A stretch of 64,000 bases of DNA, taken from the IMG/VR virus record IMGVR_UViG_3300028908_000009, positions 1 to 64,000 of that record. One strand, given 5' to 3'. The DNA is from a virus. Both the position numbers and the translations under genes were made by a program. The notes beneath the pieces were generated by a model that saw only the letters and a list, made by a program, of their open reading frames with translations, did not search any database and was not told the origin of the DNA. Each line of letters starts with the position of its first letter. Positions within the stretch are counted from its first letter, which is position 1. Shown here piece by piece: positions 1 to 20,835 of the stretch.

Positions 1-1
1 G

Positions 2-256
2 CTGTGCAACACCCGCATCCAGGGCTCCGCCGCCGACCTCATGAAGTGGACCCTCCGGCGGCTGTTCGAGGAGGCTCCCGAGTGGGTGGAGGTCGTCACC
101 ACCACCCACGACAGCTTCATGCTCCAGGTCCCGGAGGAGCGGGGCGAGGAGGGGGCCGCCTGGCTGAAGGAGAAGATGGAAGCGCCGATCCCCTGGCTGG
201 GCAACCGGCGCTTCCGTGCCGAGGTCAGGACCGGCCGGACCTGGGCGGACGTCTAG
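2..256 (+). CDS. DNA polymerase I family (family A), C-terminal end, partial
   Basis: The gene is cut by the left edge, leaving about 84 residues. The reading frame starts at base 2. It shows the family-A finger/palm signature NTRIQGSAADLMK, then the palm motif C region reading THDSF, and the usual C-terminal ending with a conserved Trp (GRTWADV). Family-A polymerases normally have His-Asp-Glu in motif C; here a Ser follows the His-Asp, a variant to check. It would be the phage replicative polymerase, acting with the recombination genes at the right end of the window. Its stop overlaps by four bases the stop of the giant late gene on the other strand, so the two arms converge here without a spacer. 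Confidence 0.85.
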   Translation: MCNTRIQGSAADLMKWTLRRLFEEAPEWVEVVTTTHDSFMLQVPEERGEEGAAWLKEKMEAPIPWLGNRRFRAEVRTGRTWADV

Positions 257-3200
257 TCCCCGGGCGGCCCTTCCACCTCGAACCGGTTCATCGTCCGGCT
301 GAACCGCTCCCGGGCCTTCTCCAGGAGCGCCTGCGGGTCGTCGGACCTCATCAGCTCGTCCGCCAGCACCCGCCCGCCGTACACCTGGCTGATCATGTTG
401 GCCCACGCCTCCTTCTCGGCCCGTTCCATCCACGGCTCGGCGTGCCCGCCCATCAGGGCCCGCCCGGACCGCAGGGCCACCCAGCGGTAGAAGTAGTCGA
501 GGGCCGCGAGGATCGCCGACTGCCCGCCGATGGCGGTGGGGACGACGAGCTGGAGCCAGTTCCCCATGTGGACCATCTTGGCGAGGAACATGATCCCCGC
601 GAACATCCAGGGGTACTTCGCCAGCCACCGGAAGCGGAAGGCGGAGATCGCCTCGGGCGACGGGACGCCCAGCTCCCCGTGCGGCGGGATCGTCTGGAGC
701 ATCGCCCGCGCGGCCTCCCGCTCCTCCTCCGTGGCGTTCCGGCCGAGCCACCGGCGGAAGGCGACGTCCGGCGACTCCATCGGCGGGACGTCCACGTCGC
801 CCGTCTCGCCGGCCCGGACGAGGGCGTCGATGAGCTGGCGGACGCGGGCCAGCCGGGCCCCCTTCTCCCACGGCAGGCGCGTCTCCGGCTCCCTCGGCCC
901 GGGCCCGGCGTACACCTCGCCGTGGCCCCACTCCGGCCGCGTGGCCCGGAAAGGACGGGTCAGGAAGGTCTTCCGCCCGAGCCCGGCCAGGAACCGCTCC
1001 CAGGCGTCCAGCCGGCTGAGGTAGACGGACTCCCTCACCTCGGCCCGGGAGAAGCGGGCCCCCGCCCGGTCGGTGATCAGCCAGTCCCGCAGGGCCAGCG
1101 GGAAGGTCCGTAGCACCGCCCAGGCCCGCCCCGGCAGGGTGGACAGCACAGGCGGCCGGCCGGCGGGCGAGTAGTTCGGGTACACCCGCTCGGTGTGGTA
1201 GAGCGCCGTGTAGTCCCGGGCGTTCAGCTTCAGCCCGCCGATGTCGATGACCTCGTCCGGCACGCCGTCCATCGCCGCCCACCAGCGGAAGGCGCGGAAG
1301 GTGACGCCCTTGAAGTAGAGATCCGTCAGGTAGAGCCCGAACAGGGCAATCCTGGCGAGGCCCTCGTAGGCCCGCTTGATGGGCATGGTCGGGGAGAGCT
1401 TCTTCGTCTTCTCCCGGGCCCCGTAGAACTCCATGAACTGCTCGTAGCTGGAGATCAGGGCCTCCCGCCGGATGTCCCGCTTGAGGACCCCCTTGCCGGC
1501 GAAGAGGGCGAGGAACTTCCGCAGCCCCACGTCGAGGAAGGTGCCGGCCTCCAGCACGGCGGCCCCGGCGAGGAAGAACGGCGCGGCGAGCATACTGCTC
1601 AGGCTGGTGCTCATCCGCACGCCGCTGAAGAAGACCTGCGTCAGGTTCAGCGCCGTGCCGGCGATCGGGTCCACGAGGGTTCCCACCGCCCGCAGGGCGG
1701 AGACGAACAGGGTGTGGCGCGTCGGCGCGCTCGGGCCGAGCCGCAGGTCCTGCGCCGGGTCGATGGCGACCAGCCCCCGGATGAACCTGTCGAGGTTCGT
1801 CGGCTTCTGCCCGAACCAGTCCTTGAACCCGTTGTCCAGGTGGCGCTCCGCCAGGTCGGGAATCCCCAGCGTCCGCTGGACCCACATGTTGTAGAGCTCC
1901 CGCTGGGGCGAGGGGAGCTGCCTGGCGAGCCGCTCCCCGCGCACCTGGATCGGGGCGAGCCAGATGTAGTTCGCCGCCCGGCGGAGGTAGTTCGAGAAGG
2001 TCAGCAGGAAGCTGGGCAGCACCCGCTCCACCTTCTCCTCGCGCCGCTTCCCGTGGACGAAGCCGACGGGCGGGGGCTCCCGCAGGTCGGAGAAGGCCGT
2101 GGAGGAAGTGTCCTTCGCCAGCTCCCGCGCCCGCGACGCCGTCAGGGCCTCCTGGTGCGGGGCGTACTCCTTGATGTCCGCCCCCTCCGGCTCGGCGATC
2201 TGCGTGCGGGTCGCTCGCTTCTCCTCCAGCAGCTCCCGCATCGCTTCGAGGTCGCGCTCCACCGTCTCCAGGCGCTTCTTCCGGGCCTTGATGATCCGGC
2301 GAGCCTTGCGACGGGCCTTGCGGAAGATGGACTCCTCCTCCTCGTTCTCCAGCTCGTACACGACGGAGTCCAGGTCGAAGCCACAGGCCGCGAGCAGGCC
2401 GGCGGGCGAGCCCTCCTTCTCCGCTTCGAGGGCCTGCTCGAACATCGAGATCTCCCGCTGGAGCATGTCCCGCTCGTACTCCAGCGCCCAGGTGGTCATC
2501 AGCGCCGGGGCCACCCGGGTCTCCTCGTAGATGCTGGCCCGGGCTTCGAGCCACTGCTCCTTGATCCGGTCGGTAACCTTTCGGAACCGGCGGTAGAGCT
2601 CGACGAGGCTGACCTCGACGGTCTTCTTCACGGGCGACAGCGGGCCGGGCCGGACGGTGTAGTAATGGCGATCCAGCCCCGAGGCCACCGCCTGCTCCGG
2701 CGTGAGGTCGCCGTTCAGCATCCGCCAGAGCAGGTGGTCCAGTCGCGGGATCCGCTCCACCGCCTCGAAGATGTCGTCCACCTCGGCGAGGATCTGCTTG
2801 AGCCAGACGAGGCGGCCCATCAGGGCGGCCCGGTGGAGGGCCCACGGGTTCCGCTCCAGCTCGCCCTCGGCGATCCGCTCGTAGAGCAGGCGGGGGGTGG
2901 GGGCCTGGAGCTCCGGCCCGATCACGGCCTCCATCCGCTTCGTGTGGGCGGAGAGGTTCTCCATCGTGAGCAGGAGGGTCCGCGTCTCGGCCAGCAGGTC
3001 GGCGATGATGAGCTTCGTCCACTTGACGGGACCGAGCCGCTTCCCCTTCCGCAGGGTCGGGTTGACCGCCTCGATGTTCTCGCGGATCACCCGCATGTCC
3101 GCAGTCTCCGCCTCGTCCAGGGCGGCCTCGCGGAGCTTCGAGTAGTTCCGCAGCACCCGGTCCATCAGCTCCCGGGCCTTCTCGTTCGGGCGACCCTGGT

Positions 3201-6200
3201 CGTCCTGGTGCGCCATCGTGACGGGCGGTAGGACGGTGTAGGGGTCGTCCACCGTGTCGAGGAAGTGGAAGTGCCGCGCGACGGCGTAGAGAAGGTCGGG
3301 GTGCAGCTCGGACAGCTTCGACGGGTCCCGCGACCACTGGGCGACGATCTCCGCCGCCTCCTCCAGGGACAGCTTCCGCCCCTCGCCGCGCCGCCGGGCG
3401 ATGCCCCGCATCGCGTCCAGCTCGGTCCGCAGCTTCTGCGTGGCCGAGACCAGGAGCTTGTGCCGCTTGAGGGCGGCGATGAGGGCCTCGTCGATCTGCG
3501 GGAGGAGGTCCAGCGGGGGCTCCCAGCCGAACGGGAAGATGCGCGACCCGTCCGCCATCGGCAGGCCCAGCTTCCGAAGCGCCCGGAGCAGGTGGGCCTT
3601 GCGGACCTGGCGGTAGCGCCCGCCGGGCATGGAGAGCTGGCCGATCCGCCGGACGATCCAGGCGGCCCGCTCCGCGTCCGACAGGATCTCGAAGGCCCAC
3701 TCCGGCAGCCCCTCGCCCCGGCGCGCGAGGTCGAGGGCCAGGAGCCGGGGGTCCTTCTCCATGACCATCTCGTACATGCCGTCGTAGGACTGGAGCACCG
3801 AGGTGGGGACCGGCAGCCCCTTCTCCAGGGCCTCGGCGATCGCCAGCAGGTGCTCCCGCTTGGAGGCGTCGGGGTGGAGCGCCTTCCACAGCGGCCAGGG
3901 CATCTTCCACGGGGCCGGCCCGCCGGCGGCGGTCATCGCCATCTGCCGCCAGGCCCCGGGTGCGAACTCCCCGAGATCCCGAAGCCGGGACCGGTCGAAG
4001 ACGACGACCGCAGGCTCGTTGCCGTGGAGGGTGGCCCGCAGCACGACGCCGTCCGGCAGCGCGTCGGCGGGGTCGAGCCCCAGCGACTCCGCCATCCTGG
4101 GCACCTGCCGGAGGACCTGCCGGATCGTCAGGTTCCGCTCGTGGACCTTCTCCGAGTCCAGCCTGCTCCAGACGCGCCGGGGGATGGCCCCCAGGTCCAG
4201 CAGGCGGACCAGGCGAGCCTCCGTGGCGCGGGCGTCCAGGTAGAGCGACTGGACGCCGCGCACGTCCACCCAGTTCCCCTCGCCGAGGAAGACCTCCTTC
4301 TGCTCGACGTTCCTCTGCCGCCCACCCCGCAGGACCGGCACGGCCGGCTGCCGCCAGTGGTCGGCATCGAGCTGGAGGTAGAGCCGGGTCTTCACCGGCA
4401 CGTCCCACCGGTTCGCCCACTCGGAGCCGGCCTGGAGAGCGGCCCAGTAATCCACCATGCGGAGGTTCCGCAGGTCCGCCAGCTCCTGGACCTCCACCGC
4501 CGTCAGCTTCTTCCCGGCGACGGCCAGCGGCAGGACCGTGGAGGAGTCCTTCACCACCGTCACCGCCGGCCGACCGGGCACGACGATGTGAACGGCGTCG
4601 AAGGTGGACCCGCTGTCGTCCCACAGCCAGCGGAGGAACTCCACCACCGGGCGGGAGGGCGGCTTCGTGGGATGGAGCCCCTCGCGCAGGTCGCGGACGA
4701 ACCGCGCCAGGTCGCCGCCGTACCGGGCCGTGACGAACCCCCGGAGGGTGCCGGGGACGTTGACGATGTCGTCACCCTCGGCGGAGACCTCCAGCACCAG
4801 CGGGTTCCCGGGGAAGACCCTGACCTCGTGGACGTAGCCGTGCCCGTTGACGGCCAGGGCGTCCACCGCGTCGGCCTCGTCCTCCCAGGCGAGGAGGAAC
4901 CCGCCGCCCCCCGGGGGATGGCTCAGGCGGAGGGAGAGCCCGAGGGAGTAGACGTAGGCGAGGTGCCCGGGCCAGGCGAAGGGGTCTTCCCCGACGTACC
5001 GGGCTCCGGGGGCGGAGGGCTTCCGGTCGGCGAGGAGCTCGGGGAGGTCCTCTCGCCAGACGGGGAGCCTGAACCACCGGAGCTTTCGCCAGATCCGGCC
5101 AGCGGGTCGGGCCGCGAGAGAAGGCCGGCGATCCCTTCCCACATCGGAGCCTTCGCGCGGCGCTCGGGCGGCAAGCTGTCCACTGCCATCCGGTAGAGCT
5201 TCTCCACGTCCAGGCCCTCCCGCTTCGCCCGCCAGAGCATCGTTCGGAGATACGGGGATACCCCGTCGGTCCGCATCAGGGCCAGGAAGATGCCTACCTC
5301 CGCCCGGTGCTCCTCGGAGCTCAGGTAGATCGTCGGCGGCAGGTGCAGCCCCAGTTCTTCCAGCTTGCTCTTGTCCACTTTCTTCACTGCTCATCCCCTT
5401 GATCGGGATATGCCCGAAGGTGTTTTTCTCCTTCTCGTAGAGCGCCCAGGCGGTCTTCGTGACCCTGACCGCCTCGACGAGCGCCTGGCGGTCCGCCATC
5501 AGCGTGTCGATCAGCTCCTTCCCGAGCCTGGCGAGCATCGGGGCGGCGTAGCGCGTGAGCTGCTGCACCGCCCACTGCCACTCGGGGGCCGTGTGGTCGA
5601 AGGCCCCTCCGCCGTGCGCGATCTCGTGGACCGCCACCTCGAAGAAGGTATCGACGATGCGCTCGACATGCACGCGCAGGTAGGAGGTGACGACCTCGTC
5701 CTCCTCCGGCGACAGCTCCCCCTCGGCCCACCGCTGGAGCTTGACCACGTCGTGCCTGTCGAAGCCGGCGTGGCGGAGGATCGTGATCGGGTTGAGAACG
5801 TACCCACGGAGAGCCCGCGAGGCGTTCATCTCCTCGACGGGGAACCCCTCGCCCAGGATCTCCCGCAGCACCTTGACCCGTTCGCCTTCCTCCAACCAGT
5901 CCAGCGGCACGCTGCGGGAGTAGCCGAGCACGTTCGGCTTATCGGTCAGCTCCCAGCCGAGGAAAGGATTCACGCTGTAGGTGAACCTTTGGAGACCGAA
6001 GCCGACCTGTCCGGGTAGGGGGATCGAGCCGAGCCCTAGCTCTTCCTTGGCGGGCAGTCCATGCTTGCCCAACAGCGACTCGACATCCACCCGGAGCCGG
6101 GCCAGCACCGACAGGATGGAGGTGAAGAACTTCCCCTCCCGGATGCCCTTCACGACCAGCTTGCCGCCCGGGTCCTTGTCGAAGACGTCGGTCGTTCGGA

Positions 6201-9200
6201 AGAGGTGGAACTTCTGCGGCTTGCCTCCGGCGTGTACGGAGGTCGGCGGCAGCTCGCCGTAGGACTCCTCGACATACTTGATCGAGAGCCGCCTGGCGGC
6301 GTCCTGCACGAAACTGTCGATCTTCTCCCGAATGATGTTCTGGACGGAAGATTGGTAGTTCGCCTTCAGGTCCTCCCGCGAGGGCAGGAAGGGATACTCC
6401 GCGTCCCGCTCCGGCACCTCCGGGTCGATGTCGATGAAGAGCGCGCTCCCGAGCTGGTTCACGATCTGGACGGTCTGGTTCCCGAGCAGGCTTATCACCG
6501 GCATGGTGAACTGCGGCAGCCCACGGATGGAGATGTGAGCGATGATCATCCGGCTGTGGCTGGGCAGGATGGCACCGGTCGATTTCTGCCCGATCCCCCA
6601 CACCTGTACGTTGCTCTTCTTCAGGCTGCCCTCGATGGCCCCCGCGATCTCCGGCAGGGGCACGAGCCCGATGTCGGAGGCATCCACGCCCTCCCCTCGC
6701 CAGAAGTCGTAGGCATCGTTTCCTACCAGCGGCCGCGTCGCCCCCTCGTTGTCCAGCCAGCCCGGGACCGGGAGCCCCAGCGACTTCAGTGCCTTCTTCA
6801 GCACCGGCAGCGGGAAGAACGACATGGCCCTGGACGGGCCGCTGTTCAGGCCCATCACCAGTTGCTGCAATGGAGTGGAGAGCAGATGCCCCGATCCCAG
6901 GGCCTCTACCAACGAGGTGACCAGCTCCGCCCGCCGCTCATCGGGGGAGCAATACCACCACCACCGCTCGGCCAGTTCGGCGAGACGCGAGCCCTCGGGA
7001 GCGATGGTCCCGATGGAGAGGTTCTGGATGGAGGCGCGAGGGTCATCCCCCATCACGAGGCCCTTCCAGGCGTCGGGGATCTCGAACTCGAACCGGACCG
7101 CCTGGTCCAGCAGCCCCAGCTCGGCGTAGGACTGGAGGGTGAGGGCCCACTCCATCGTGGGTCGCAGGAAGCGGTTCAGCGCCGGGCCGGGGAGGCTCTC
7201 AAGGAAATCGTGCATCTGCTTCCCGGCCAGCTCCGCATCGTTGGGCGGGGCACCGTCGATGTAGCCGGGAAGCCGGGCCTCCGGCGGGTACTTCCAGCGG
7301 AGGATGTCGGTCTCCCTGTCACGCTCCATGTCGAAGAGCATGGAGGGGAACCGCATCGTGATCCGCGTGCCCATCGGGTCGTCGGGCCGGGCCGGCCGGG
7401 TCGTCATCCGGGCCTTCATCGTCTGCCGGTACTCGTGCGGATCGACTTCCAGCTCGGTGACGGTCGAGCCGTCGTTCGTCCAGACCTGCACCTCCGAGAA
7501 GACGAAGATCGCCTTCGCGCCGATCCCGAACCCCCCGACGGTGCCCTCCTTCTCCTGGATCTTCACGTTCGCCAGGGAGAGGAAGTGCTTCCGGATCGTC
7601 TCTGGGCTCATCCCGTCCCCGTCGTCCTCGACCGTCAGGGCCAGGTTGGCCGGATCGACGGCGAGACGGATGCGCCCGCCGGTGCCGCCGTGTCGGCGGC
7701 GAACGGCCCCGAGAGCATTCTGCACGGCCTCGCGGATGGCGACGCCGACGGGGTGGGACTGGTATCGCCCGGCCGTCTGGTCGTGCAGGACGTTGGAGAT
7801 GTTGATCTCGCCCCGCACCTCTTCCTGCGGCTCGCCCGCTTCCATCGGCTGCTCCCGCCACTCGTTCGGCTGCGGTGGGTACAGCTCGTCCTCGTTGTGC
7901 GCGTCGATGATCCGGATGTTCTCCGGATCGAGCACGGCGACGATGTCGTTGGGCGGCCCGAGATCGACGAGGTCGGTGAAGATCGCCCCGTCGTGACCAC
8001 CCTTGATCGCGCGATCGACGTTCTCCCCCATGCCGACGAGGTTCCAGGGCTTTCCCTTCGCCGGGACGATGAGCGGGTTCCGGAGCCGAACGGCATTCCG
8101 CCGGATGAGATTGAGCTGGATCAGCCCGCGAGCGTGGACGAGCTTGACGAAGTAGTCGTCCGGGTCGGGCTGCTCCCCGGACATGTCCAGCGGCGGCTCG
8201 CGGAACCACTCCCTCGGGAGAGAGGTGAAGAGATCCCTCGCGGCCTCGACGAACCCCTCGGGAACGGGGTCATCAAGGTCCGCGTCCAGGAACTTGGGTA
8301 GCCGGAATAGCAGCCTGCCAATCAACCTCATGCCCAGCACGTAGGGGGCATGTGAGGCGTTGTACGGGATCTCCAGCTCGTTCTCGTAGAGGGTGCGATC
8401 CATCAGCGCGACTCTCGGCATCGCCATGGCGACGTGGGCGATGGGGGAGAGCAGCACGTGGTAAAGCAGCGTATCGTATCCCTCCAGCACGGCATCCAGG
8501 TAAACCCCGTACTTCTCCAGGAACTCCTTATCCGCCAGGTTCGTAAAGGCTGCATCCAGCAGCGTGTAGTAGAGGCGGACGACCTGACCGCCGGTCCACC
8601 CCAACCGCCTTACGATGGCTTGCCCGAGGTCGGCCATGAGCATGGCGGCGTGATCGATAGCCGCAGACTCCTTGTCGCCTTCCTCAATCCTCCTTGCCGC
8701 CGCCTTCAGTGCCTCGAACTCCGGCAGGCTCTGTACCTCGGGCGGAATGTCACGAGCCGTATAGCGCCCCGGCCCGTCCATGAGGGCTATCGTTCCGAAC
8801 GTTTCAAGACGGTGCAGCGGGAAACCCGTATCGAGACTGGCCGCGAAATCGTATGCCCTGGCGAGGTGGGTGAGGGCCCCCGATCCGAGGAGGCGCTGAA
8901 CGAACTCCCTTCCCCCCAGGCCGTAGGCGCACCACCAGCGCCACATGCTATCTATCCACTGGTCGGCCTCGGCCGCCTCCGTGTCATCGTAGCCCGGGGG
9001 GAAGTCCAGCACTTCTTCGCTGTAGAGCTCATCGAGCGTCGCGGGGTCGAAGGCTTGTCGCTCAGGAAGGCGGAAAATCCCCTCCTCTACCAGGACCTGG
9101 ATGGCCCTCTTCTCCAGGGGTTCGAGGGGGGCGAAGCCGAGCCCCTTGTTCGTCAACGCCATGCGGGCAATATTGCCGATGTTGCTGGAGGTAAAGGTGG

Positions 9201-12200
9201 CATGGGACGCCCCGAAGATGGTATGGAAGAGGAGACCGGTCGGGACGGCCCACGTGAACGCCGCACGCCTCGTGGTCATATACAACCACGCTTCTCGGAC
9301 ACGAGGGTCGGGATGGTTGAGAAACCCCATCTCGACGATGAAGACGAAAGGCCCCTCGTAGAGGTCATGCTGGAAGCCCGGCCAGGCGAGCAGCGCAGCC
9401 AGCCCCCGCTTCATCGGATCGGCGTCGAGAAGCTGGTTCTTGACGATGGGCTTTGCCGCCTTCTCCAGCGCCGCGTGGAGCACCCCCAGCAGAGGTGCCC
9501 GGTTCCCCGGGGAGGCATCCAGCTTCGTGAGGAGGGTCCACGTGGCCGGCTCGACATACTCGGCGAGGTAGCGCTGCTGGGCCTTCATCATCTGTAGGGG
9601 CGTCGGGACCTCGCCCTCCTCCAGGTTCCAGGGCAGGGGGATCCGTGGGGGAAGCGGAGCATTCTTGTCCACGAGCCAGCGCAGCTTCGGCATCGATTCG
9701 AGCAGCCGTCGGGCTTCCGCTCCCCAGGTTCCGCTCGACGCCAGCACCTCCTTCATGGCGCGCCTGACCTTGTCAGGCCCGGAAACCATGGCGAGGAATC
9801 CAAGCCCGCTGATGGTGGACACGTAGGCGGCGATTCCCTGGGAGGTACGTACCTCCGTTGGAGGGGAGGATCTGTAACCCCTCTTCAGGTCGGCCTTGAT
9901 TCGGAGGGCCCACCAGATCAGTCCATCGGACACCTCGCCCAACGGGTCCCGCGACTCCTCGCCAAAGCGAAGTGGATTACGATACGACGGCTTGTGGAAG
10001 AAGGTATGCAGGCTCTTCCGGAGCACGGAACCCGAGGGGAGGGTGGCCCATTCGAGGGGGAAGCTGGACGGGACGCTCCCGGTGAAGGTCTTCTCCACGA
10101 GCTGGGGCCAGCGCCGACGAAGCTCCTCGACGGCCGTCTTCCACATCTCCAGCCGACGACGCCTGGCCTCCTCGCTCTCGCCCACGTAGGCCCGCCTGAC
10201 GATGATTTGCTTCTGGTACTTGAAGAAGACCTTGAAGTCGTCCCGTGCGGCCGTCCTGGAGAAGTGCGGCTCAGCGGGAAGAGCCTTCTCCGCTGCCCAC
10301 GCCAGCTTGTTGAGCGCCAGCTCGGTGAACGAGCGGGAGGTGACGGGGTCGGTGGCGGCCCACACGGCCATCCTGGCCGAGTAGGCACCGGTCACCTCTC
10401 CCAGCCTCTCCTTCTCGTACTGGAGGAACGTCGGGTCGGCCGTCCCGTGGTAGAAGATGATCGGCGAGCCGTCCGGGTGAACGAGGACCGAGTCCTGGAC
10501 CCACTTCCAGATCGGCCACGTGCTGTCGTCGTCCCCCACCTCCATCGCCTGCTGCTGCCACACGGGCGTGGCGATGGTCGGCTCGGTCGCGTCCTCCGCC
10601 TTCGCGCGGGCGTTCAGGACCTTCTTCGCCTGCCGAACGAACTGGCGAGCCGCCAGCCACCCGCCGGCCTTCTCGTAGCCGTCCGCCTGGCGGAGGACGG
10701 CCGCCGCGTCGGAACCGTCCCGCTCGACGACGTCCGGTCCCGGCGGGGCCTCGGGCAGCTCCTCCTCCAGCTCGGAGATGGTGTCTCGCAGGGCCTGCAC
10801 CTCCCCCTTCGTCAGCTCCCGGGGGCTCTCCAGCCGCTCGACCGCCTCGGCCGCCCGGCTGAGGATGTCCGGCTCGACGCCCATCATCTCCCGCCGGGCC
10901 TGCTCGAACTCGGCTGCCGCCCGGGGATCGACCTCCGCGAGCCGGAGCTCGCCCCGGTCGGTCAGCTCCCACCGGACGGGCAGGCCGGGCACCGGCGTGA
11001 ACGACCAGCCGGGCCCGGCGAGGTCGTGGTAGCGGACCGGCGTGATCCGCCCGGACCGGTCCTGGAACCACGGCTCGCCGGCCCACTGCACGACGGCGAG
11101 CCTGTCCCCGGAGGGCGTCCGAGCGACGCCGATGGCGATCGGCTGCTCCTCGTCGAAGCCGGCGAACGCCCGCGAGGCGGCCACCTTCTGCTGCTTCGCC
11201 GCCTCCCAGGGACGGGTCTCCCAGTCCCGGGCCGAGGGAACGGCCAGCTCCTTCCCGAGCGGGATGTTGATGTCCCCCCGCACGGGCTCCGGCGCGGGCC
11301 CCTCGCCGTCCGCCTCGATCGCCCGGGCCTCCTCCCGCGTCAGGACGGTTCGGACTGGCTTCGCCTCCGCCCCGCTCGTGAAGGTGGCGACGACCTCCCG
11401 GGGGCCGAGGTCCTCCAGCCGCGCCCGGGTCTTCGCCTTCACCCGCTCCCGCAGGGCGGTGAACTCGTTGGGCCGATCCTCGCCCCGGAGGAACTGCGGC
11501 AGGTCGGCCCCGAGGGCCTGCACGTCCTCCCACCGGTAGACCCGGACCCGGCCCGTTCGCGGGTCCCGCGCGACCAGCGGGGGGACGGGCACCCCTGCCT
11601 CGTCCAGCCGGCCGGCCAGCTCCAGCGCCGGCGCGAGGAGGCCGGGCAGGGAGCCGTCCTGCATCGCCGGCGGGTCCGGGAGCTGCACGTCGTGCCGGTT
11701 GGCCGCCTGTACCAGCTCGTCCGCCCAGCGGACCACGGCGGCCCGACCGGCGACCTCCACCACGCCCGGACCCCGCAGCCCGGGCTCGCGGAAGAAGGCG
11801 TCGGTGTCGATCCCGAGCAGGCGATCGACCCTCCGAACACCCTCCGCCGAGCCGGCCAGCCGGCTGGCCTCCTCGATGACGGCCACCGCACCGGTGTTGG
11901 CCGCCGCCAGCTCGGCGTCCGACATGGTGCCCAGGGCCGGCCGGAGGAACTCCAGGTCCTCCGCCACCTTCTCGGCCACCTCGATCGGGCGCGGGTCGCC
12001 CGTCGCGTCCACGGCCTCCCTCGCGTGCCGGCGGGCCGTGTCGAGCCGCGCCGAGGCCCAGAGAGGCGAGGCCGCCATCTGCGGGTCCCGGACGCCCTGG
12101 GGCTCCGGGGCGGGCGCGGGAGGCCCCTCCGCGCGCGTGAGCGGCCGGACCTCCGGGATCGGCGTCTGGAGCACGCCCGGCGTCGCCCGGGGCACGGGCT

Positions 12201-13728
12201 CGACCGGGGGAGCCGGCGGCGGCGTGGCGGCCGCTTCCCCGGCTTCGAGGAGCGGGCGCTCCCCGGCCCGGGCGGCCAGCTCCGGCACCGGTCCCTGGGG
12301 CACGGGCCGCCCGGCGAGCAGCTCGCCGCCGAGCCGGCCCGCCGCAGCCAGCGGGCCGAAGAGGGCGGCCCCACGGGCGATGGCGGACGCCTCGGCCCCG
12401 AGGGCCTGCCCGGGGGTGATCTCCCCGGACAGGGTCCGGCCGGCCAGCTCCGGGGCCGCGTAGGCCCCCGTGAACCCGCCGGCCACGGTAGCGTGCCGGA
12501 CGCCGGACGCCCCGGCCTTCAGGGCCAGCTCGCCGATCCGCCGGCCGGCCGTCTGGCGAACGATCCGAAGCCCCAGCTTCCCGCCCTGCCGCTTCGCCAC
12601 GCTCCGCAGCAGGTCGATGGCCCGGTCCACCAGGACCTGGTCCGCCTCGGGCGGGAGGATCACCTTCATCCCGCCCTTCCCCCCGACCACCCGCGCGCCG
12701 GCCCGGTCGAGCATCTCCGCCGCCCGGGACAGCTCCCAGGTGGAGAGCCCGAGCTCCCGGGAGCCGAACCGCCCGGTGACGGAGAACAGCCGGCGGAGGA
12801 CCGGCCCGAACGCCTCGGCGACGGTGCTGCCGCCCACCTGGACGGCCAGCTTCTCCAGCGGGGAGGCCAGGAGGTTCCCCGCCCGCAGCAGGCCCCGACC
12901 GAGGAGGCCGGCCGGGCCGGAGAACAGCATCCCCGCGACCTCGGCCTTCGTCCGGGCCTCCCGGGGGACGCCGCCCAAGAGGGAGAACTCCTCCTCCGCC
13001 CGCCGCCAGCGCTCGGAGAGGGCCGGCAGGTTGAGCGCCCAGCCGCGCACCCCGGCCATCCCCATCGCCGCCGCGCCCGCCCACGGGTGCTGCTGGCGGG
13101 AGAGGATGAGCGCCCGCGTTCGCAGCCGGCGGGAGAGGTCCGGGTCGTTCTCCTCGCCCTCGAAGATGGGGACCCACACGGTGCGCCCGGGAGCCCCCGG
13201 GCCGGGCAGCGCGGTGCCGGCCAGGCCGAGCCGCCCGGCCTCCTCCCGCTCGGGCCCAGGCAGCTCCCGCGAGGGGGCGAGGTGGTAGGGCCGGATGGAG
13301 ATGACCCGCCGGCGCTGCATCGAGGAGTACGGCTGCCGCACCGTGCGCCCGAGGCCACCGGGGACGTGGCGGTCCTCCCACCCTTCCGGCGGCACCATCT
13401 CGCCGCCCGGGGGCTGGATCGCCCCCTGCTGGAGCATTCGGAGCGTCTCGCCGCCGATCTCCCGGAAGCGCCGGCCGGCCTCGGGCGGAGGAGTCGCCGC
13501 CACCCGCCGAGCCAGCTCGGCCCGCATCCCCGCGAGCGGGTCTGCGACGGCGGGAGGCTGGAGCTCGGGCTGCCCGGGCGCTGGCTCGGTGGAAGCAGGA
13601 GAGGCCGCCGCGCCGGAGAGCGCGGGCTCCTTCGCGGGCGTCCCTCCCGCCGGCAGGTCGGGAGGGGCCGGCGGATTCGGCTGCTGGAACCTGGGATCGA
13701 CTCCCGCGTTCAGCGGCGTGAGCGCCAT
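253..13728 (-). CDS. giant polyvalent (multi-domain) phage protein, 4491 codons: ART-like, GHKL ATPase, zinc peptidase
   Basis: This is the last late gene, and its size and position resemble large proteins injected with phage DNA. ATG at 13728 follows GGAGG. The first ~500 residues are Pro/Ala-rich. Around residue 1090 is the ADP-ribosyltransferase-like start IIFYHGT. At ~1870-1940 there is a stretch like the C-terminal half of that fold (GGHDGAIF, then IVAVLDPENIRII). A GHKL ATPase follows at ~2000-2070 (N box REAVQNALGA, VEDDGDGMS, GGFGIGAKAIF). A zincin motif HEIAHGGG lies near 2700. Further ART-like ends lie near 3043 (FDAVHIVV) and 3240 (VVVFDRSRLRD). Hydrophobic segments lie near 4015-4060 and 4375-4415. 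This combination matches the polyvalent-protein class of phages and conjugative elements, thought to protect incoming DNA or disarm the host. No T7-like RNA polymerase motif was seen. The frame seems to jump between 5390 and 5070, so it may really be two genes. Confidence 0.85.
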   Translation of the reverse strand: MALTPLNAGVDPRFQQPNPPAPPDLPAGGTPAKEPALSGAAASPASTEPAPGQPELQPPAVADPLAGMRAELARRVAATPPPEAGRRFREIGGETLRMLQQGAIQPPGGEMVPPEGWEDRHVPGGLGRTVRQPYSSMQRRRVISIRPYHLAPSRELPGPEREEAGRLGLAGTALPGPGAPGRTVWVPIFEGEENDPDLSRRLRTRALILSRQQHPWAGAAAMGMAGVRGWALNLPALSERWRRAEEEFSLLGGVPREARTKAEVAGMLFSGPAGLLGRGLLRAGNLLASPLEKLAVQVGGSTVAEAFGPVLRRLFSVTGRFGSRELGLSTWELSRAAEMLDRAGARVVGGKGGMKVILPPEADQVLVDRAIDLLRSVAKRQGGKLGLRIVRQTAGRRIGELALKAGASGVRHATVAGGFTGAYAAPELAGRTLSGEITPGQALGAEASAIARGAALFGPLAAAGRLGGELLAGRPVPQGPVPELAARAGERPLLEAGEAAATPPPAPPVEPVPRATPGVLQTPIPEVRPLTRAEGPPAPAPEPQGVRDPQMAASPLWASARLDTARRHAREAVDATGDPRPIEVAEKVAEDLEFLRPALGTMSDAELAAANTGAVAVIEEASRLAGSAEGVRRVDRLLGIDTDAFFREPGLRGPGVVEVAGRAAVVRWADELVQAANRHDVQLPDPPAMQDGSLPGLLAPALELAGRLDEAGVPVPPLVARDPRTGRVRVYRWEDVQALGADLPQFLRGEDRPNEFTALRERVKAKTRARLEDLGPREVVATFTSGAEAKPVRTVLTREEARAIEADGEGPAPEPVRGDINIPLGKELAVPSARDWETRPWEAAKQQKVAASRAFAGFDEEQPIAIGVARTPSGDRLAVVQWAGEPWFQDRSGRITPVRYHDLAGPGWSFTPVPGLPVRWELTDRGELRLAEVDPRAAAEFEQARREMMGVEPDILSRAAEAVERLESPRELTKGEVQALRDTISELEEELPEAPPGPDVVERDGSDAAAVLRQADGYEKAGGWLAARQFVRQAKKVLNARAKAEDATEPTIATPVWQQQAMEVGDDDSTWPIWKWVQDSVLVHPDGSPIIFYHGTADPTFLQYEKERLGEVTGAYSARMAVWAATDPVTSRSFTELALNKLAWAAEKALPAEPHFSRTAARDDFKVFFKYQKQIIVRRAYVGESEEARRRRLEMWKTAVEELRRRWPQLVEKTFTGSVPSSFPLEWATLPSGSVLRKSLHTFFHKPSYRNPLRFGEESRDPLGEVSDGLIWWALRIKADLKRGYRSSPPTEVRTSQGIAAYVSTISGLGFLAMVSGPDKVRRAMKEVLASSGTWGAEARRLLESMPKLRWLVDKNAPLPPRIPLPWNLEEGEVPTPLQMMKAQQRYLAEYVEPATWTLLTKLDASPGNRAPLLGVLHAALEKAAKPIVKNQLLDADPMKRGLAALLAWPGFQHDLYEGPFVFIVEMGFLNHPDPRVREAWLYMTTRRAAFTWAVPTGLLFHTIFGASHATFTSSNIGNIARMALTNKGLGFAPLEPLEKRAIQVLVEEGIFRLPERQAFDPATLDELYSEEVLDFPPGYDDTEAAEADQWIDSMWRWWCAYGLGGREFVQRLLGSGALTHLARAYDFAASLDTGFPLHRLETFGTIALMDGPGRYTARDIPPEVQSLPEFEALKAAARRIEEGDKESAAIDHAAMLMADLGQAIVRRLGWTGGQVVRLYYTLLDAAFTNLADKEFLEKYGVYLDAVLEGYDTLLYHVLLSPIAHVAMAMPRVALMDRTLYENELEIPYNASHAPYVLGMRLIGRLLFRLPKFLDADLDDPVPEGFVEAARDLFTSLPREWFREPPLDMSGEQPDPDDYFVKLVHARGLIQLNLIRRNAVRLRNPLIVPAKGKPWNLVGMGENVDRAIKGGHDGAIFTDLVDLGPPNDIVAVLDPENIRIIDAHNEDELYPPQPNEWREQPMEAGEPQEEVRGEINISNVLHDQTAGRYQSHPVGVAIREAVQNALGAVRRRHGGTGGRIRLAVDPANLALTVEDDGDGMSPETIRKHFLSLANVKIQEKEGTVGGFGIGAKAIFVFSEVQVWTNDGSTVTELEVDPHEYRQTMKARMTTRPARPDDPMGTRITMRFPSMLFDMERDRETDILRWKYPPEARLPGYIDGAPPNDAELAGKQMHDFLESLPGPALNRFLRPTMEWALTLQSYAELGLLDQAVRFEFEIPDAWKGLVMGDDPRASIQNLSIGTIAPEGSRLAELAERWWWYCSPDERRAELVTSLVEALGSGHLLSTPLQQLVMGLNSGPSRAMSFFPLPVLKKALKSLGLPVPGWLDNEGATRPLVGNDAYDFWRGEGVDASDIGLVPLPEIAGAIEGSLKKSNVQVWGIGQKSTGAILPSHSRMIIAHISIRGLPQFTMPVISLLGNQTVQIVNQLGSALFIDIDPEVPERDAEYPFLPSREDLKANYQSSVQNIIREKIDSFVQDAARRLSIKYVEESYGELPPTSVHAGGKPQKFHLFRTTDVFDKDPGGKLVVKGIREGKFFTSILSVLARLRVDVESLLGKHGLPAKEELGLGSIPLPGQVGFGLQRFTYSVNPFLGWELTDKPNVLGYSRSVPLDWLEEGERVKVLREILGEGFPVEEMNASRALRGYVLNPITILRHAGFDRHDVVKLQRWAEGELSPEEDEVVTSYLRVHVERIVDTFFEVAVHEIAHGGGAFDHTAPEWQWAVQQLTRYAAPMLARLGKELIDTLMADRQALVEAVRVTKTAWALYEKEKNTFGHIPIKGMSSEESGQEQAGRTGAAPAADDLPELRGAPGGGRHLPGPDADRRGIPVSPNDALAGEAGGPGRGEALPDGSGQLAARAPREGSDVGRDRRPSLAARPAGRIWRKLRWFRLPVWREDLPELLADRKPSAPGARYVGEDPFAWPGHLAYVYSLGLSLRLSHPPGGGGFLLAWEDEADAVDALAVNGHGYVHEVRVFPGNPLVLEVSAEGDDIVNVPGTLRGFVTARYGGDLARFVRDLREGLHPTKPPSRPVVEFLRWLWDDSGSTFDAVHIVVPGRPAVTVVKDSSTVLPLAVAGKKLTAVEVQELADLRNLRMVDYWAALQAGSEWANRWDVPVKTRLYLQLDADHWRQPAVPVLRGGRQRNVEQKEVFLGEGNWVDVRGVQSLYLDARATEARLVRLLDLGAIPRRVWSRLDSEKVHERNLTIRQVLRQVPRMAESLGLDPADALPDGVVLRATLHGNEPAVVVFDRSRLRDLGEFAPGAWRQMAMTAAGGPAPWKMPWPLWKALHPDASKREHLLAIAEALEKGLPVPTSVLQSYDGMYEMVMEKDPRLLALDLARRGEGLPEWAFEILSDAERAAWIVRRIGQLSMPGGRYRQVRKAHLLRALRKLGLPMADGSRIFPFGWEPPLDLLPQIDEALIAALKRHKLLVSATQKLRTELDAMRGIARRRGEGRKLSLEEAAEIVAQWSRDPSKLSELHPDLLYAVARHFHFLDTVDDPYTVLPPVTMAHQDDQGRPNEKARELMDRVLRNYSKLREAALDEAETADMRVIRENIEAVNPTLRKGKRLGPVKWTKLIIADLLAETRTLLLTMENLSAHTKRMEAVIGPELQAPTPRLLYERIAEGELERNPWALHRAALMGRLVWLKQILAEVDDIFEAVERIPRLDHLLWRMLNGDLTPEQAVASGLDRHYYTVRPGPLSPVKKTVEVSLVELYRRFRKVTDRIKEQWLEARASIYEETRVAPALMTTWALEYERDMLQREISMFEQALEAEKEGSPAGLLAACGFDLDSVVYELENEEEESIFRKARRKARRIIKARKKRLETVERDLEAMRELLEEKRATRTQIAEPEGADIKEYAPHQEALTASRARELAKDTSSTAFSDLREPPPVGFVHGKRREEKVERVLPSFLLTFSNYLRRAANYIWLAPIQVRGERLARQLPSPQRELYNMWVQRTLGIPDLAERHLDNGFKDWFGQKPTNLDRFIRGLVAIDPAQDLRLGPSAPTRHTLFVSALRAVGTLVDPIAGTALNLTQVFFSGVRMSTSLSSMLAAPFFLAGAAVLEAGTFLDVGLRKFLALFAGKGVLKRDIRREALISSYEQFMEFYGAREKTKKLSPTMPIKRAYEGLARIALFGLYLTDLYFKGVTFRAFRWWAAMDGVPDEVIDIGGLKLNARDYTALYHTERVYPNYSPAGRPPVLSTLPGRAWAVLRTFPLALRDWLITDRAGARFSRAEVRESVYLSRLDAWERFLAGLGRKTFLTRPFRATRPEWGHGEVYAGPGPREPETRLPWEKGARLARVRQLIDALVRAGETGDVDVPPMESPDVAFRRWLGRNATEEEREAARAMLQTIPPHGELGVPSPEAISAFRFRWLAKYPWMFAGIMFLAKMVHMGNWLQLVVPTAIGGQSAILAALDYFYRWVALRSGRALMGGHAEPWMERAEKEAWANMISQVYGGRVLADELMRSDDPQALLEKARERFSRTMNRFEVEGPPGD
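4923..5387 (-). other. alternative-frame coding segment inside the giant gene (probable start of a second gene)
   Basis: A GTG at 5387, after AAGGGG, opens a frame offset from the giant gene. Its first ~95 codons end mostly in G or C and give a balanced, natural-looking protein (begins MKKVDKSKLEELGLHLPP). The giant frame over the same bases gives an Arg/Gly/Pro-rich string typical of a shadow frame. Near 5100-5070 the natural-looking sequence returns to the giant frame (IWRKLRWFRLPVW). Adding one G to the GGGG run just upstream would end the first gene in GDEQ-stop, giving a GTGA overlap with this GTG like others in the window. I infer two adjacent genes, joined here by indels or by recoding. 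Confidence 0.5.
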
Positions 13729-13741
13729 CGTCTCGATCCTC

Positions 13742-16042
13742 CTACTGTGCCGGGGCGGGCTGGGCCTGGGGGGGCTGGGCCTGGGGCTGTACCCCGATGT
13801 AGGGCGAGAGCTGCTGCCGGATCTCCTCGCCGGACAGGGCGGACCCGAAGGTCGTGCTGATCCACCCGCCGCCCGTCGCGGTCTCGTCCATCCACCGCTG
13901 CGTGATCATCGCCGCGAGCCTGGGATCCTGCGTGATCTCCAGCGCCTTCTGGTACACGAAGCCCACCACGTCGGCCCCGTACTGGTTGATCAGCTCGGCG
14001 TTGCCGCCCTGGAGGCCGTTCTCGATGAAGAACCGGAGGGTCGTACCCTTCGGCGCACCGGGCGGGGTCCATCGGTCCGCTTCCAGCGCGACCTGGCCCT
14101 GGAGCCGGCGGTACGCCTCCCCGGGATCGAGCACCGCCTCGGGCGGGTGCCCCCCGGGCATCCTGTCGGAGAGGGCCGCGTCCCGGAGGTACGACAGCTC
14201 CTGGAGCCGCGACTGGAGCCTGAGGATGGTCGAGTCGATGTCGGAGATGGCGTCCCGGTAGATCATCCGGGCTCGCGGGGACCAGGTCTCGTGGTAGGCC
14301 ATCTCGTAGGCGGCCTTGGTGTTTTCGAGCTGCCGGAGCTGGGCGGCGATGTGGCCCGCCGTCTCGTCCACCAGGCGCGCGCTATCGACGCGGCCCCGGC
14401 GGATCTGCTCCTGGATCTGGGCGATCTGCGCGTCCGTCCGCTCGATCGTCTTCCGGTTGGCGTCGATCGTCGCCTCGACGCGCCGGACCTCGGCCTCGGC
14501 CATCTGCTCGTTCCGCTTCTCCTCCTCGCGCAGGCGGAGAACGTGGTCTCGCAGCTCGGGGTCCTTCTCCCACTCGGGGTAGAGCGAGGTGATGACCGAC
14601 GAGCCGACGCCGCCCTTGCGCGTGATGTCGGTGGCCTTCAGCAGGGTCGCGGCCTTCCTCTCCCGCAGCTCGTACTCGTGTTTCCCCTGGCTGTACCGGG
14701 CCGTCCACTGCTGGAGGGCCTTCTCCGCAGCCTCCAGCTCCTCGGGCGTCTGGATGTCCGCCGGGATCTCGGGCAGCCCCTCGGTATCGACGGGGATGCC
14801 GTCCTTTGCCATCTGGTCCAGCAGCTCCCGGTGGCGGCGGTGGAACTCCTGCACCTGCTGGCGGAAGAGCAGGCCCTCCTGCTTCTTCTCCATCCGCCGG
14901 CCGATCATCATCTCCCGCAGGAGCTGGAGGCCGGTCCGCACGGCGGCCTGCCGCCCGGCGTGGGCCTGCGAGAGCATCTGCATCGCCATCTCCGGGTGCT
15001 GGATGGCGAGGATGGCGATGCCCAGCCGCTGGGAAGGGGACAGCTCGGCCGCTTCGAGCACCCCCTTCATGTATCTCTCGAACTCCTCCTTGTTGACGCC
15101 GGGGGGCAGCTCACCCTCTTCCTCGTCGGGCACGATGTCCTTCGCCGCCTGGAGGGGATTCTCCTCGACCTCCTCCTCCGGGACCGGCTCCCCACGCTCA
15201 TCGACGAGCGTCTCGCCGGGCTCCTCCTCCGAGGCCGGCTCGGCGGTGGGCTGGGCACCCTCGGCGGCCCCGGACGGTTCCTCCGTCGAAGGGGCCTCCC
15301 CCGTGGCCTGGGAGGGAGCAGCCCCCTCCGTGGTGCCCGCCACGAGCTCCCGCTCCATCAGGGACTTCACCCGCTCGGCGTGCCCCCGCGACTCCTCCGG
15401 CCACTCCTCCGGCGACTTCCCGATGACCTGGCCGGGCCCACCGTTGTAGGCGGCGAACACCTCCTCCGGCGTCTTCGCCCCGTAGTCGGCCTGGAGCCGC
15501 TTCAGGTAGCGCGCGGCGGCCCGGGCCTCCAGCTCCGGGTTCCCCAGCACCTCCTTGGGGTCCATCCCCACGTCCTTGACAGCCTGGGGGGTGAGCTGGA
15601 AGAGCCCGACGGCTCCCTTCTTGCTGACGGCGTCCAGGTTGCCGGAGGACTCCGCTCGGGCCAGGGCGCGCAGCGCAGCCGGATCGACGCCCTCCTCGTG
15701 CGCCACCCGCTCGACGAGCTGCCCCATGTCCGGGTCGAGCGGCGGGAACTTCCGCTCCAGCTCGTCGGCGGCGGGCTGCTGCTGGGGGGTGGAGGGGGGC
15801 TGCTGGACGGCGGGCTGCGCTGGGGCGACCAGGCCGGGAGGGGTCTCGCCCTGGAAGATCGCCGGGACCTGCGGGGTCGCGGGAGGCTCCGGCTCCGGGA
15901 CTGCCGGGGGAGCGGTCGAGATGTCTTCCGCCGGGGCGTAGACGAGAGGGGTCTCCGGCTCCTGCCTGGCGGCTCCGAGGGCCTGGGCCAGGCCCTGGAG
16001 GAAGTCCAGCGTGTAGGGCTGCCCGACGTCGGTCGAGAACAT
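13742..16042 (-). CDS. internal virion protein with lytic transglycosylase (SLT) domain
   Basis: The protein is 766 residues. The ATG at 16042 was chosen because it sits seven bases after GGAGGAC; the longer frame would overlap the upstream gene. After a Pro-rich N terminus, an SLT/lysozyme-like domain spans about residues 105-210. It contains the catalytic-type Glu in ALARAESSGN (~129), then GLFQLTP (~148) and AAYNGGPG (~199). Such domains cleave the peptidoglycan glycan strand between MurNAc and GlcNAc. The rest is acidic and then mostly helical, including a long charged coiled-coil-like stretch. Its place between a small internal protein and the giant gene suggests it is packed in the head and opens the cell wall during DNA entry. 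Confidence 0.85.
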   Translation of the reverse strand: MFSTDVGQPYTLDFLQGLAQALGAARQEPETPLVYAPAEDISTAPPAVPEPEPPATPQVPAIFQGETPPGLVAPAQPAVQQPPSTPQQQPAADELERKFPPLDPDMGQLVERVAHEEGVDPAALRALARAESSGNLDAVSKKGAVGLFQLTPQAVKDVGMDPKEVLGNPELEARAAARYLKRLQADYGAKTPEEVFAAYNGGPGQVIGKSPEEWPEESRGHAERVKSLMERELVAGTTEGAAPSQATGEAPSTEEPSGAAEGAQPTAEPASEEEPGETLVDERGEPVPEEEVEENPLQAAKDIVPDEEEGELPPGVNKEEFERYMKGVLEAAELSPSQRLGIAILAIQHPEMAMQMLSQAHAGRQAAVRTGLQLLREMMIGRRMEKKQEGLLFRQQVQEFHRRHRELLDQMAKDGIPVDTEGLPEIPADIQTPEELEAAEKALQQWTARYSQGKHEYELRERKAATLLKATDITRKGGVGSSVITSLYPEWEKDPELRDHVLRLREEEKRNEQMAEAEVRRVEATIDANRKTIERTDAQIAQIQEQIRRGRVDSARLVDETAGHIAAQLRQLENTKAAYEMAYHETWSPRARMIYRDAISDIDSTILRLQSRLQELSYLRDAALSDRMPGGHPPEAVLDPGEAYRRLQGQVALEADRWTPPGAPKGTTLRFFIENGLQGGNAELINQYGADVVGFVYQKALEITQDPRLAAMITQRWMDETATGGGWISTTFGSALSGEEIRQQLSPYIGVQPQAQPPQAQPAPAQ

Positions 16043-16055
16043 CTTCCGTCCTCCG

Positions 16056-16736
16056 CTAGCCGAAGAGCTTCTTCCCGACGCTGCCGCCGAGGAGGCCACC
16101 GATGAAGTTCCCGAGGCCGCCGGCCGCACCGCCGCCCGTCTGGGGAGCGCCGGGGATCGGGGCACCGATCAGCGTCTGCGCCTCGCCGAGCTGCTTGGCG
16201 ATGAGCTGCTGGATCATGTTCTGGAACAGGTTCCCCGCGAGCCCGATGTCCTGCCGGCGGAGCCCCTCCTGGAGATCCGCGAGCTGCCGGTACGCCTGGT
16301 TCGCCTGGTTCTGGGCGTTCAGCAGGCCGGAGGTGAGCATCGCCCCCGGGACCCCCACGCCCCCGGCCGCAGTGTTCAGGTCGGGAGCCACGCCGGCCTG
16401 CATGGCCGCCCCCGGGATGGCGGCGCGCATCATCCCCATCATCCGGTTCTGTGCCTCCGCGATCCGCTCCTGGTGCTGCGGCCCGAGCTGGCCGGGGTTC
16501 TGGAGCATCGAGAGCATCTGCTGGACGAGCGCACCACCGACCGGCGACTGCCCGCCCTGGAAAAGCCCGGGGGCGAACATGCTGCCGGCCTGAAGATATG
16601 CCCCGGGGGAGATCCGCTGCTTCCCCTGCCGGTAGTGCTGCTTCGCCATCTTGTACGGGAGCATCGACGCCCGCGACTGCTTGCTCGCGCCGAGCAGGCT
16701 GGCCGCCGCACCGATCGCCGGAACTGCCCAGGCCAT
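16056..16736 (-). CDS. putative internal virion / DNA ejection protein
   Basis: The protein is 226 residues, Ala/Gly/Gln/Met-rich, with a hydrophobic N terminus (AVPAIGAAASLLGA) and a glycine-rich C-terminal tail (GGLGNFIGGLLGG). ATG at 16736 lies six bases after GGAGGG; a TTG two codons upstream is possible but less likely. It overlaps the stop of the nozzle-like gene and precedes the transglycosylase gene by 14 bases. Small helical Ala/Gly/Gln-rich proteins in this position of podovirus genomes are usually ejection proteins that accompany the transglycosylase. That role is inferred from position and composition; no specific motif proves it. Confidence 0.55.
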   Translation of the reverse strand: MAWAVPAIGAAASLLGASKQSRASMLPYKMAKQHYRQGKQRISPGAYLQAGSMFAPGLFQGGQSPVGGALVQQMLSMLQNPGQLGPQHQERIAEAQNRMMGMMRAAIPGAAMQAGVAPDLNTAAGGVGVPGAMLTSGLLNAQNQANQAYRQLADLQEGLRRQDIGLAGNLFQNMIQQLIAKQLGEAQTLIGAPIPGAPQTGGGAAGGLGNFIGGLLGGSVGKKLFG

Positions 16737-19273: not shown

Positions 19274-19276
19274 CGT

Positions 19277-19591
19277 CTACCCCTTCGGCTGCCACTCGAC
19301 GTGGATGTGATCCGCTTCGAGGACGACGTCGAACTCGTCGCCGAGGACCTCGCGCAGGCGGTTGGTGACCTTCTGAACGCGCTCGGGGGGGAGGTTGGAG
19401 GTTCGGAGGTCCACGGCGTGGCCGACGTAGTGGAGGGAGGTCGGCGAGTGCTTCCCGTCCGAGCAGGAAGTGACGACCATCTCCTTCGCCTTGCCGGTCA
19501 CCTCGTACACCCCCGCCGCCGCGTGGAGCGCGAGGACGAGCTGGGGGGCCAGCCCGAGCAGCCGGACCCCCGGCTTGAGCCGTATTACCAT
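19277..19591 (-). CDS. M15-family peptidase, probable endolysin (D-Ala-D-Ala type)
   Basis: The protein is 104 residues. The ATG at 19591 shares one base with the stop of the gene before it and follows GGAGGA. The zinc-binding residues of the M15 fold can be seen: His and Asp in SLHYVGHAVDL (residues ~52-62) and the C-terminal EADHIHVEW (~92-100). The family cuts peptide cross-links in peptidoglycan. No cell-wall-binding domain is present, so it is a single-domain enzyme. The holin and other small membrane proteins lie 0.8-2.8 kb upstream in the same operon, which makes lysis the likely role. A virion-associated entry enzyme is the alternative. Confidence 0.8.
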   Translation of the reverse strand: MVIRLKPGVRLLGLAPQLVLALHAAAGVYEVTGKAKEMVVTSCSDGKHSPTSLHYVGHAVDLRTSNLPPERVQKVTNRLREVLGDEFDVVLEADHIHVEWQPKG

Positions 19592-19821: not shown

Positions 19822-19824
19822 CGG

Positions 19825-20022: not shown

Positions 20023-20026
20023 GATG

Positions 20027-20356: not shown

Positions 20357-20365
20357 GATGCCTCC

Positions 20366-20557: not shown

Positions 20558-20559
20558 CG

Positions 20560-20820: not shown

Positions 20821-20835
20821 CTCTCGCTCTCCCGA

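What the first reader, a model, noticed from the sequence alone, without database searches (positions are those of the whole stretch)
253..13728. 13.5-kb polyvalent protein combining ADP-ribosyltransferase-like, GHKL ATPase and zincin modules
One reading frame carries motifs of at least three enzyme classes with a lysine-poor, Pro/Ala-rich linker architecture and two hydrophobic zones near the C terminus. Such fused effector proteins are known from phages and conjugative elements, but this domain combination and length are unusual, and most of the chain has no recognisable domain.
Basis: partly seen in the sequence, partly recalled or inferred. Interest (0 to 1): 0.75.

Follow-up and report, generated by a model that had tools for sequence, protein, structure and literature searches.

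The report
Giant phage ejection-type multidomain protein locus
A phage from an environmental DNA survey devotes a fifth of its genome to one huge late gene region that looks like a multi-enzyme protein injected with its DNA, with an ATPase module not listed for such proteins before, but about 100 codons in its middle are in the wrong reading frame, so it may really be two proteins.

Summary
The ORF exists on the minus strand (253-13728, 4,491 codons). It is the last gene of the late (virion) cluster of a podovirus-like phage whose record closes on itself (about 66.7 kb), right after a lysozyme-bearing internal virion protein. That is the position of injected proteins such as the N4-type virion RNA polymerase. 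Of the three claimed enzymes, the GHKL ATPase is certain (Pfam, above cut-off); profile tests with controls place it in the Hsp90/rIIA branch. The ADP-ribosyltransferase (ART) is supported but appears split: its first part lies at residues 1086-1126 and its last part at 1879-1933, with about 720 residues of different codon composition between. The zincin rests on an HExxH motif only; profiles found nothing. New and important: residues 2780-2876 are out of frame. Codon statistics favour the +1 frame by 138 bits there, and in none of 837 other windows. So the 4,491-aa chain is unlikely to be made exactly as read; either two compensating frameshifts or two to three separate proteins are involved. 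Only one relative was found: collinear, cut off inside this gene, 30-37% identical over the first ~440 residues, while most neighbours are 42-91%. Best filed as a new variant of known phage polyvalent proteins.

The parts
253..13728 (-). 4,491-codon ORF as annotated (P0001)
5392..13728 (-). Segment X: residues 1-2779, coding in the ORF's own frame; carries the ART pieces, GHKL and HExxH
   Evidence: frame Viterbi and codon scores
12400..13728 (-). N-terminal region (residues 1-443), the only part with a relative (30-37% identity to G001)
10351..10473 (-). First part of ART-PolyVal domain (residues 1086-1126, ...IIFYHGT..., candidate catalytic His 1094)
   Evidence: PF18760 E 0.007; home-made profile 18 bits, next best ORF window in the whole window 2.2 bits
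8119..10278 (-). About 720-residue intervening segment (1151-1870), GC3 0.82 against 0.95 elsewhere in the gene
   Evidence: z = 11.7
7930..8094 (-). Last part of ART domain (residues 1879-1933, AVRLRNPLIV...GGHDGAIF)
   Evidence: separate C-half profile, best hit in the window: 8.8 bits, next 3.7
7411..7800 (-). GHKL ATPase domain (residues 1977-2106): N-box ExxxNA, G1 DDGDGM, G2 GGFGIGAK
6286..6387 (-). PSRE transducer-like motif (residues 2448-2481), as in rIIA proteins
   Evidence: transducer-half profile: best window of the gene, E 0.06, next 2.7; over the whole window E 0.25, next 1.2
5581..5637 (-). Zincin-like motif VAVHEIAHGGGAFDHTAPE (residues 2698-2716)
   Evidence: motif only; profile searches negative
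4923..5387 (-). Segment Y: ORF of 154 codons in the +1 frame, GTG start preceded by AAGGGG; its first about 97 codons carry the coding signal
256..5097 (-). Segment Z: residues 2878-4491, again in the ORF's own frame; nearest upstream start is GTG at residue 2863 (window 5142)
1534..1590 (-). Hydrophobic segment, residues 4047-4065
499..555 (-). Hydrophobic segment, residues 4392-4410
13742..16060 (-). Upstream neighbour: internal-virion-type protein with SLT transglycosylase domain (ORF listed as 13742-16165)
   Evidence: PF01464 E 6e-20; PHROG internal virion/endolysin/tail families
41..256 (+). End of a convergent family A DNA polymerase gene (with N-terminal uracil-DNA-glycosylase domain) that runs across the record's end

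Best explanation
The locus encodes a phage polyvalent protein made late, packed in the capsid or its internal core, and injected with the DNA. Proposed working: (1) the Pro/Ala- and Gly/Ala-rich N-terminal region and the hydrophobic stretches serve packaging and passage through the cell envelope (inferred); (2) once inside, the HExxH module cuts the long chain into working pieces or cuts host proteins (inferred; Iyer et al. propose this for such modules); (3) the ART module, if its two parts fold together around the inserted segment, modifies host proteins with NAD+ (inferred); (4) the GHKL ATPase of the Hsp90/rIIA branch acts as an ATP-driven clamp on a host target, most likely as counter-defence (inferred). 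Shown: late-cluster position, GHKL domain, ART signature in two places, and a change of reading frame near residue 2780. The product is probably not the exact 4,491-residue chain. The coding sequence is either one chain whose residues 2780-2876 are read in the +1 frame (two compensating indels, natural or from assembly), or a protein of about 2,780 residues (ART, GHKL, zincin) followed by one or two others.
For: Context: the minus-strand cluster runs terminase, SU10-type portal, capsid, tail genes, transglycosylase protein, giant, convergent with the polymerase gene. The N4-like phage RPP1 has the same layout around its 11.3-kb virion RNA polymerase, the published prototype of polyvalent ARTs (PMC5512222). 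Phage polyvalent genes typically sit near virion genes (PMC5512222). GHKL. Hsp90/rIIA branch: rIIA profile scores giant 39 bits, HtpG 37, GyrB 9.5, MutL 5, CpxA 2. ART first and last parts each rank first in the window with separate half-profiles. Frame change. Fast divergence: giant N-terminal region 30-37% against mostly 42-91% for neighbours in the only relative.
Against: No experiment shows packaging. No complete homologue was found, so domain borders and conservation of active sites are untested. Structure models had very low confidence. The ART is below Pfam's cut-off, and its score (about 14 bits) is far under the 47-102 bits of real members in leave-one-out tests. True rIIA proteins score 175-398 bits against 39 here. 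The zincin has no profile support.
Confidence: 0.6

Rival explanations
1. The 4,491-residue chain is real and translated exactly as read, including residues 2780-2876 in the ORF's frame; segment Y is an overlapping gene laid over a disordered linker.
For: No stop codon interrupts the frame; the residues in question look linker-like (Gly, Ala, Pro, charged); Y has its own GTG preceded by AAGGGG. The end overlap (126 bp exact) is like that left by short-read k-mer assemblers (own knowledge), which rarely make indels.
Against: Codon usage in the segment favours the +1 frame by 138 bits, a complete reversal seen nowhere else in the gene; third-position GC in the ORF's frame drops to 0.48-0.66. A shifted frame is open by chance about three times in four.
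Confidence: 0.12
2. Two or three separate late proteins: X (about 2,780 aa) ending near window 5391, a small protein Y, and Z (about 1,600-1,700 aa); the apparent fusion comes from a lost stop.
For: A TGA in the +1 frame, then a GTG start 3 nt later with AAGGGG about 7 nt before it; Z has a GTG at 5142; X carries all recognisable enzyme motifs.
Against: X has no stop in its own frame, and Y's frame runs about 55 codons into Z, so indels are still needed. No relative reaches this part.
Confidence: 0.4
3. A purely structural ejection or core protein in which the enzyme-like pieces are decayed and inactive.
For: The ART is split by about 720 residues and aligns only weakly; the zincin lacks profile support; many ejection proteins are long and helical (own knowledge).
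Against: All GHKL nucleotide-binding boxes are intact (0 expected by chance), as is the HExxH; the gene shows coding constraint throughout.
Confidence: 0.2
4. The GHKL module is a topoisomerase-type or histidine-kinase-type ATPase serving phage DNA handling, not a counter-defence module.
For: The best PHROG match is DNA topoisomerase II large subunit (E 3.5e-4) ahead of rIIA (E 0.19); a Campylobacter phage topoisomerase scores 25.8 bits alone.
Against: The multi-member rIIA profile separates the giant and HtpG (39 and 37 bits) from GyrB, MutL, CpxA and phage topoisomerase (at most 9.5); a PSRE motif follows; no Toprim domain was found.
Confidence: 0.2

Closest known systems
Phage polyvalent proteins (Iyer et al. 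2017, PMC5512222), in particular the RPP1 N4-like virion RNA polymerase
   Same: Very large, next to virion genes, downstream of a structural gene and convergent with replication genes, ART signature, HExxH motif
   Different: No RNA polymerase recognised; GHKL, rIIA and Hsp90 are not among the domains named in that paper; ART interrupted by a long segment; no sequence match to RPP1's metallopeptidases
rIIA proteins of T4- and N4-like phages
   Same: GHKL ATPase of the Hsp90/rIIA branch followed by a PSRE-type segment
   Different: rIIA are stand-alone proteins (702-867 aa as fetched), often with rIIB next door; here the module lies inside a giant late gene, scores far lower than true rIIA, and no rIIB was found
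T7-type ejection proteins (gp14-gp15-gp16)
   Same: Same end of the virion gene cluster; transglycosylase-bearing neighbour
   Different: Here the transglycosylase is in a separate protein; no sequence match of the giant to PHROG internal virion families

Membership tests
Phage polyvalent proteins | Two or more unrelated enzymatic domains in one polypeptide | tested here: inconclusive
   GHKL certain; ART below cut-off but supported by half-profiles; both lie in segment X, before the frame change
Phage polyvalent proteins | Gene located among late virion genes | tested here: met
Phage polyvalent proteins | Packaged and injected with the DNA | not testable with these tools
   needs virion proteomics
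ART-PolyVal (PF18760) | Score above the curated cut-off over most of the domain | tested here: not met
   17.6 bits against 31.2; positions 3-40 of 140 only
ART-PolyVal (PF18760) | Strand-1 His, strand-2 Tyr, strand-5 Asp (PMC5512222) | tested here: inconclusive
   His 1094 and an Asp in GGHDGAIF (1913) are candidates; no clear strand-2 match in the alignment
GHKL ATPase superfamily | HATPase profile above cut-off and intact N, G1 and G2 boxes | tested here: met
rIIA | Profile score in the range of known rIIA | tested here: not met
   39 bits against 175-398 for members left out of the profile
rIIA | rIIB partner in the genome | tested here: inconclusive
   no rIIB among the phage proteins scanned against PHROGs; not every small ORF was scanned
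MPTase-PolyVal (PF18818) / zincin | Profile match | tested here: not met
   no match at E 10 in the genome
MPTase-PolyVal (PF18818) / zincin | HExxH motif | tested here: met
   residues 2701-2705

The most novel reading that the evidence does not exclude
A phage pre-loads an Hsp90/rIIA-type ATPase into its virion as part of an injected multi-enzyme protein, so that a counter-defence usually made after infection is present from the first second; its ART has been opened by a foreign helical segment yet may still fold, and the chain is made through a frame change.
Probability: 0.15. Interest if true: 0.72.

Novelty: new variant of a known kind. Interest (0 to 1): 0.48.

Why it matters
rII systems counter Rex exclusion in several phages (PMC11879866), but how they work is still unclear. 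An injected relative of the rIIA ATPase would separate that function from early gene expression and make its timing testable. The case also shows that in 70% GC genomes an unbroken ORF of record length can hide a frame change, so a length record should be checked with codon statistics first.

Tried and rejected
Homologue searches with the whole ORF, thirds of it and single modules in IMG/VR, GTDB genomes and phage records found no relative of the giant apart from G001's truncated N-terminal region. One search gave one extra locus, L035, with only a transglycosylase match and no giant. A DNA-pattern search for the GHKL glycine box hit unrelated frames. AlphaFold2 without an alignment: pLDDT 40 and 36, not used and not sent to fold search. 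PDB search: only CpxA at E 0.1. N4-type RNA polymerase in the giant: no blastp similarity to RPP1 vRNAP better than E 0.5. Intein as the ART insert: judged by eye and rejected (helical, no intein end motifs seen). A second ART at 2900-3100: half-profile scores no better than shuffles. LPD38 at the C terminus: no match, but no positive control rang. First impression 'rIIA proper' was withdrawn after the HtpG control.

Full report
WHAT IS THERE. The ORF runs on the minus strand from 13728 to 253 and has 4,491 codons. The window is bases 1-64000 of a 66,785-base IMG/VR virus record. The first 128 bases of the record recur at its end with one mismatch (126 exact), and the family A DNA polymerase gene continues across that join, so the genome closes on itself at about 66.7 kb. 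The giant ORF takes up about a fifth of it.

CONTEXT. On the minus strand, from 40152 down, lie a large terminase, an SU10-type portal protein, the major capsid protein, glycosyltransferase-like genes, a tail fibre with T7-type similarity, an 844-aa protein with a weak internal-virion match, a 228-aa protein, a transglycosylase protein and then the giant. The plus strand carries replication genes and a sigma factor. The order resembles T7-type ejection genes and, more closely, the N4-like phage RPP1, in which the 11.3-kb virion RNA polymerase follows a structural gene and meets the replication genes head-on. Iyer et al. (PMC5512222) note that phage polyvalent genes typically lie near virion genes.

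ONE RELATIVE. Record IMGVR_UViG_3300005096_000060 (29.5 kb) is collinear from terminase to giant. Most neighbours are 42-91% identical. The giant's first 443 residues are 30% identical in the tblastn alignment and 37% in the MAFFT alignment, and that contig ends after 434 residues. The gene is therefore shared but diverges fast. No other relative of the giant appeared in phage records, IMG/VR or GTDB genomes; it may also be that the pattern-based searches only reach close kin.

GHKL. Pfam HATPase_c_3 and HATPase_c match residues 1996-2128 above their cut-offs. N-box, G1 and G2 boxes are intact; none of 2,000 shuffles of the protein produced the combined motif. In tblastn of phages the weak matches were topoisomerase large subunits and many rIIA proteins. 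A profile of eleven rIIA-type proteins (most annotated rIIA) gives 39-40 bits. Controls matter here: E. coli HtpG (Hsp90) gets 37 bits, GyrB 9.5, MutL 5 and CpxA 2.4, while true rIIA left out of the profile get 175-398. So the module belongs to the Hsp90/rIIA branch but is not shown to be an rIIA. The rIIA members were gathered through the giant's own weak hits, which favours a match somewhat. A separate profile of the rIIA transducer half, which was not used for recruitment, has its best hit at PSRE, residues 2448-2481 (E 0.06, next 2.7, over gene windows and shuffles; E 0.25, next 1.2, over the whole window). This is suggestive, not significant.

ART. PF18760 matches residues 1086-1128 only, positions 3-38 of 140. 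I built a profile from RPP1 and seven phage relatives. Its first half ranks residues 1086-1112 first (18 bits; next window 2.2). Its second half, tested separately, ranks 1879-1917 first (8.8 bits; next 3.7). In RPP1 the two motifs lie about 90 residues apart; here about 820. The stretch between (1151-1870) has third-position GC 0.824 against 0.948 for the rest of the gene, z = 11.7. The simplest reading is an ART opened by an inserted segment of other origin. A degenerate tandem pair is possible.

ZINCIN. One HExxH, residue 2701, in a context that fits the PROSITE zinc-protease pattern as I remember it; 0.004 such matches are expected per shuffled protein, 0.10 for HExxH alone. No profile supports it. 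It is a good candidate, not a finding.

THE FRAME CHANGE. Third-position GC falls to 0.48-0.66 at residues 2761-2910. A frame-tracking model places the coding frame at +1 between window 5389 and 5096 and back to the ORF's frame after that. Scored with codon usage of other late genes only, the +1 frame wins by 138 bits over residues 2780-2876, while the ORF's frame wins by at least 35 bits in each of 837 other windows. The +1 frame has a TGA directly before the segment and a GTG start after it with AAGGGG upstream. Shifted frames of this kind stay open for 98 codons in 73-79% of windows, so the unbroken ORF is weak evidence for one protein. Every explanation needs two departures from a simple gene. 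The end overlap of the record looks like a short-read k-mer assembly (own knowledge), which makes two indel errors within 300 bases unusual; so real biology cannot be set aside. This cannot be settled without reads or a relative.

FUNCTION. I hold an injected polyvalent protein to be most likely (0.6). Packaging, processing by the HExxH module, host ADP-ribosylation and an ATP-driven counter-defence are inferences from families: Iyer et al. for packaging, ART and metallopeptidases; PMC7824862 for rIIA as GHKL counter-defence; PMC11879866 for rII against Rex. None was tested here.

NOVELTY. GHKL, rIIA and Hsp90 are not treated as polyvalent domains in the survey: GHKL and Hsp90 do not occur in its main text, and library searches for rIIA or GHKL with 'polyvalent protein' gave no such fusion (only open-licence papers are held). 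I rate it a new variant of a known kind, with interest reduced by the broken frame and the lack of homologues.

Noticed in passing
window 1-128 and record bases 66658-66785: Terminal overlap of 128 bases with one mismatch (126 exact): the record is a closed genome of about 66.7 kb; the DNA polymerase gene crosses the join.
   Followed up: yes
record 64193-66785 continuing to window 256, + strand (L002:14193 onward): Family A DNA polymerase with a uracil-DNA-glycosylase domain at its N terminus (PF03167 E 1.3e-10, PF00476 E 7e-30).
   Followed up: no
window 28699-29883 and 31383-32180, - strand: Glycosyltransferase-type genes among the virion genes; the first is clear (phrog_7162 E 1.7e-29), the second weak. 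Both are conserved in the relative.
   Followed up: no
window 19256-20854, + strand: 532-aa plus-strand ORF inside the minus-strand late cluster; codon scoring assigns this stretch to several minus-strand frames, so it is probably a shadow ORF although the relative shows similarity in pieces.
   Followed up: partly
window 21573-22121, - strand: 182-aa late protein 91% identical to the relative, the most conserved gene of the cluster; PHROG family phrog_1544 of unknown function.
   Followed up: no
window 62652-63071, + strand: Phage-encoded sigma-factor-like protein (phrog_351 E 2.9e-11).
   Followed up: no
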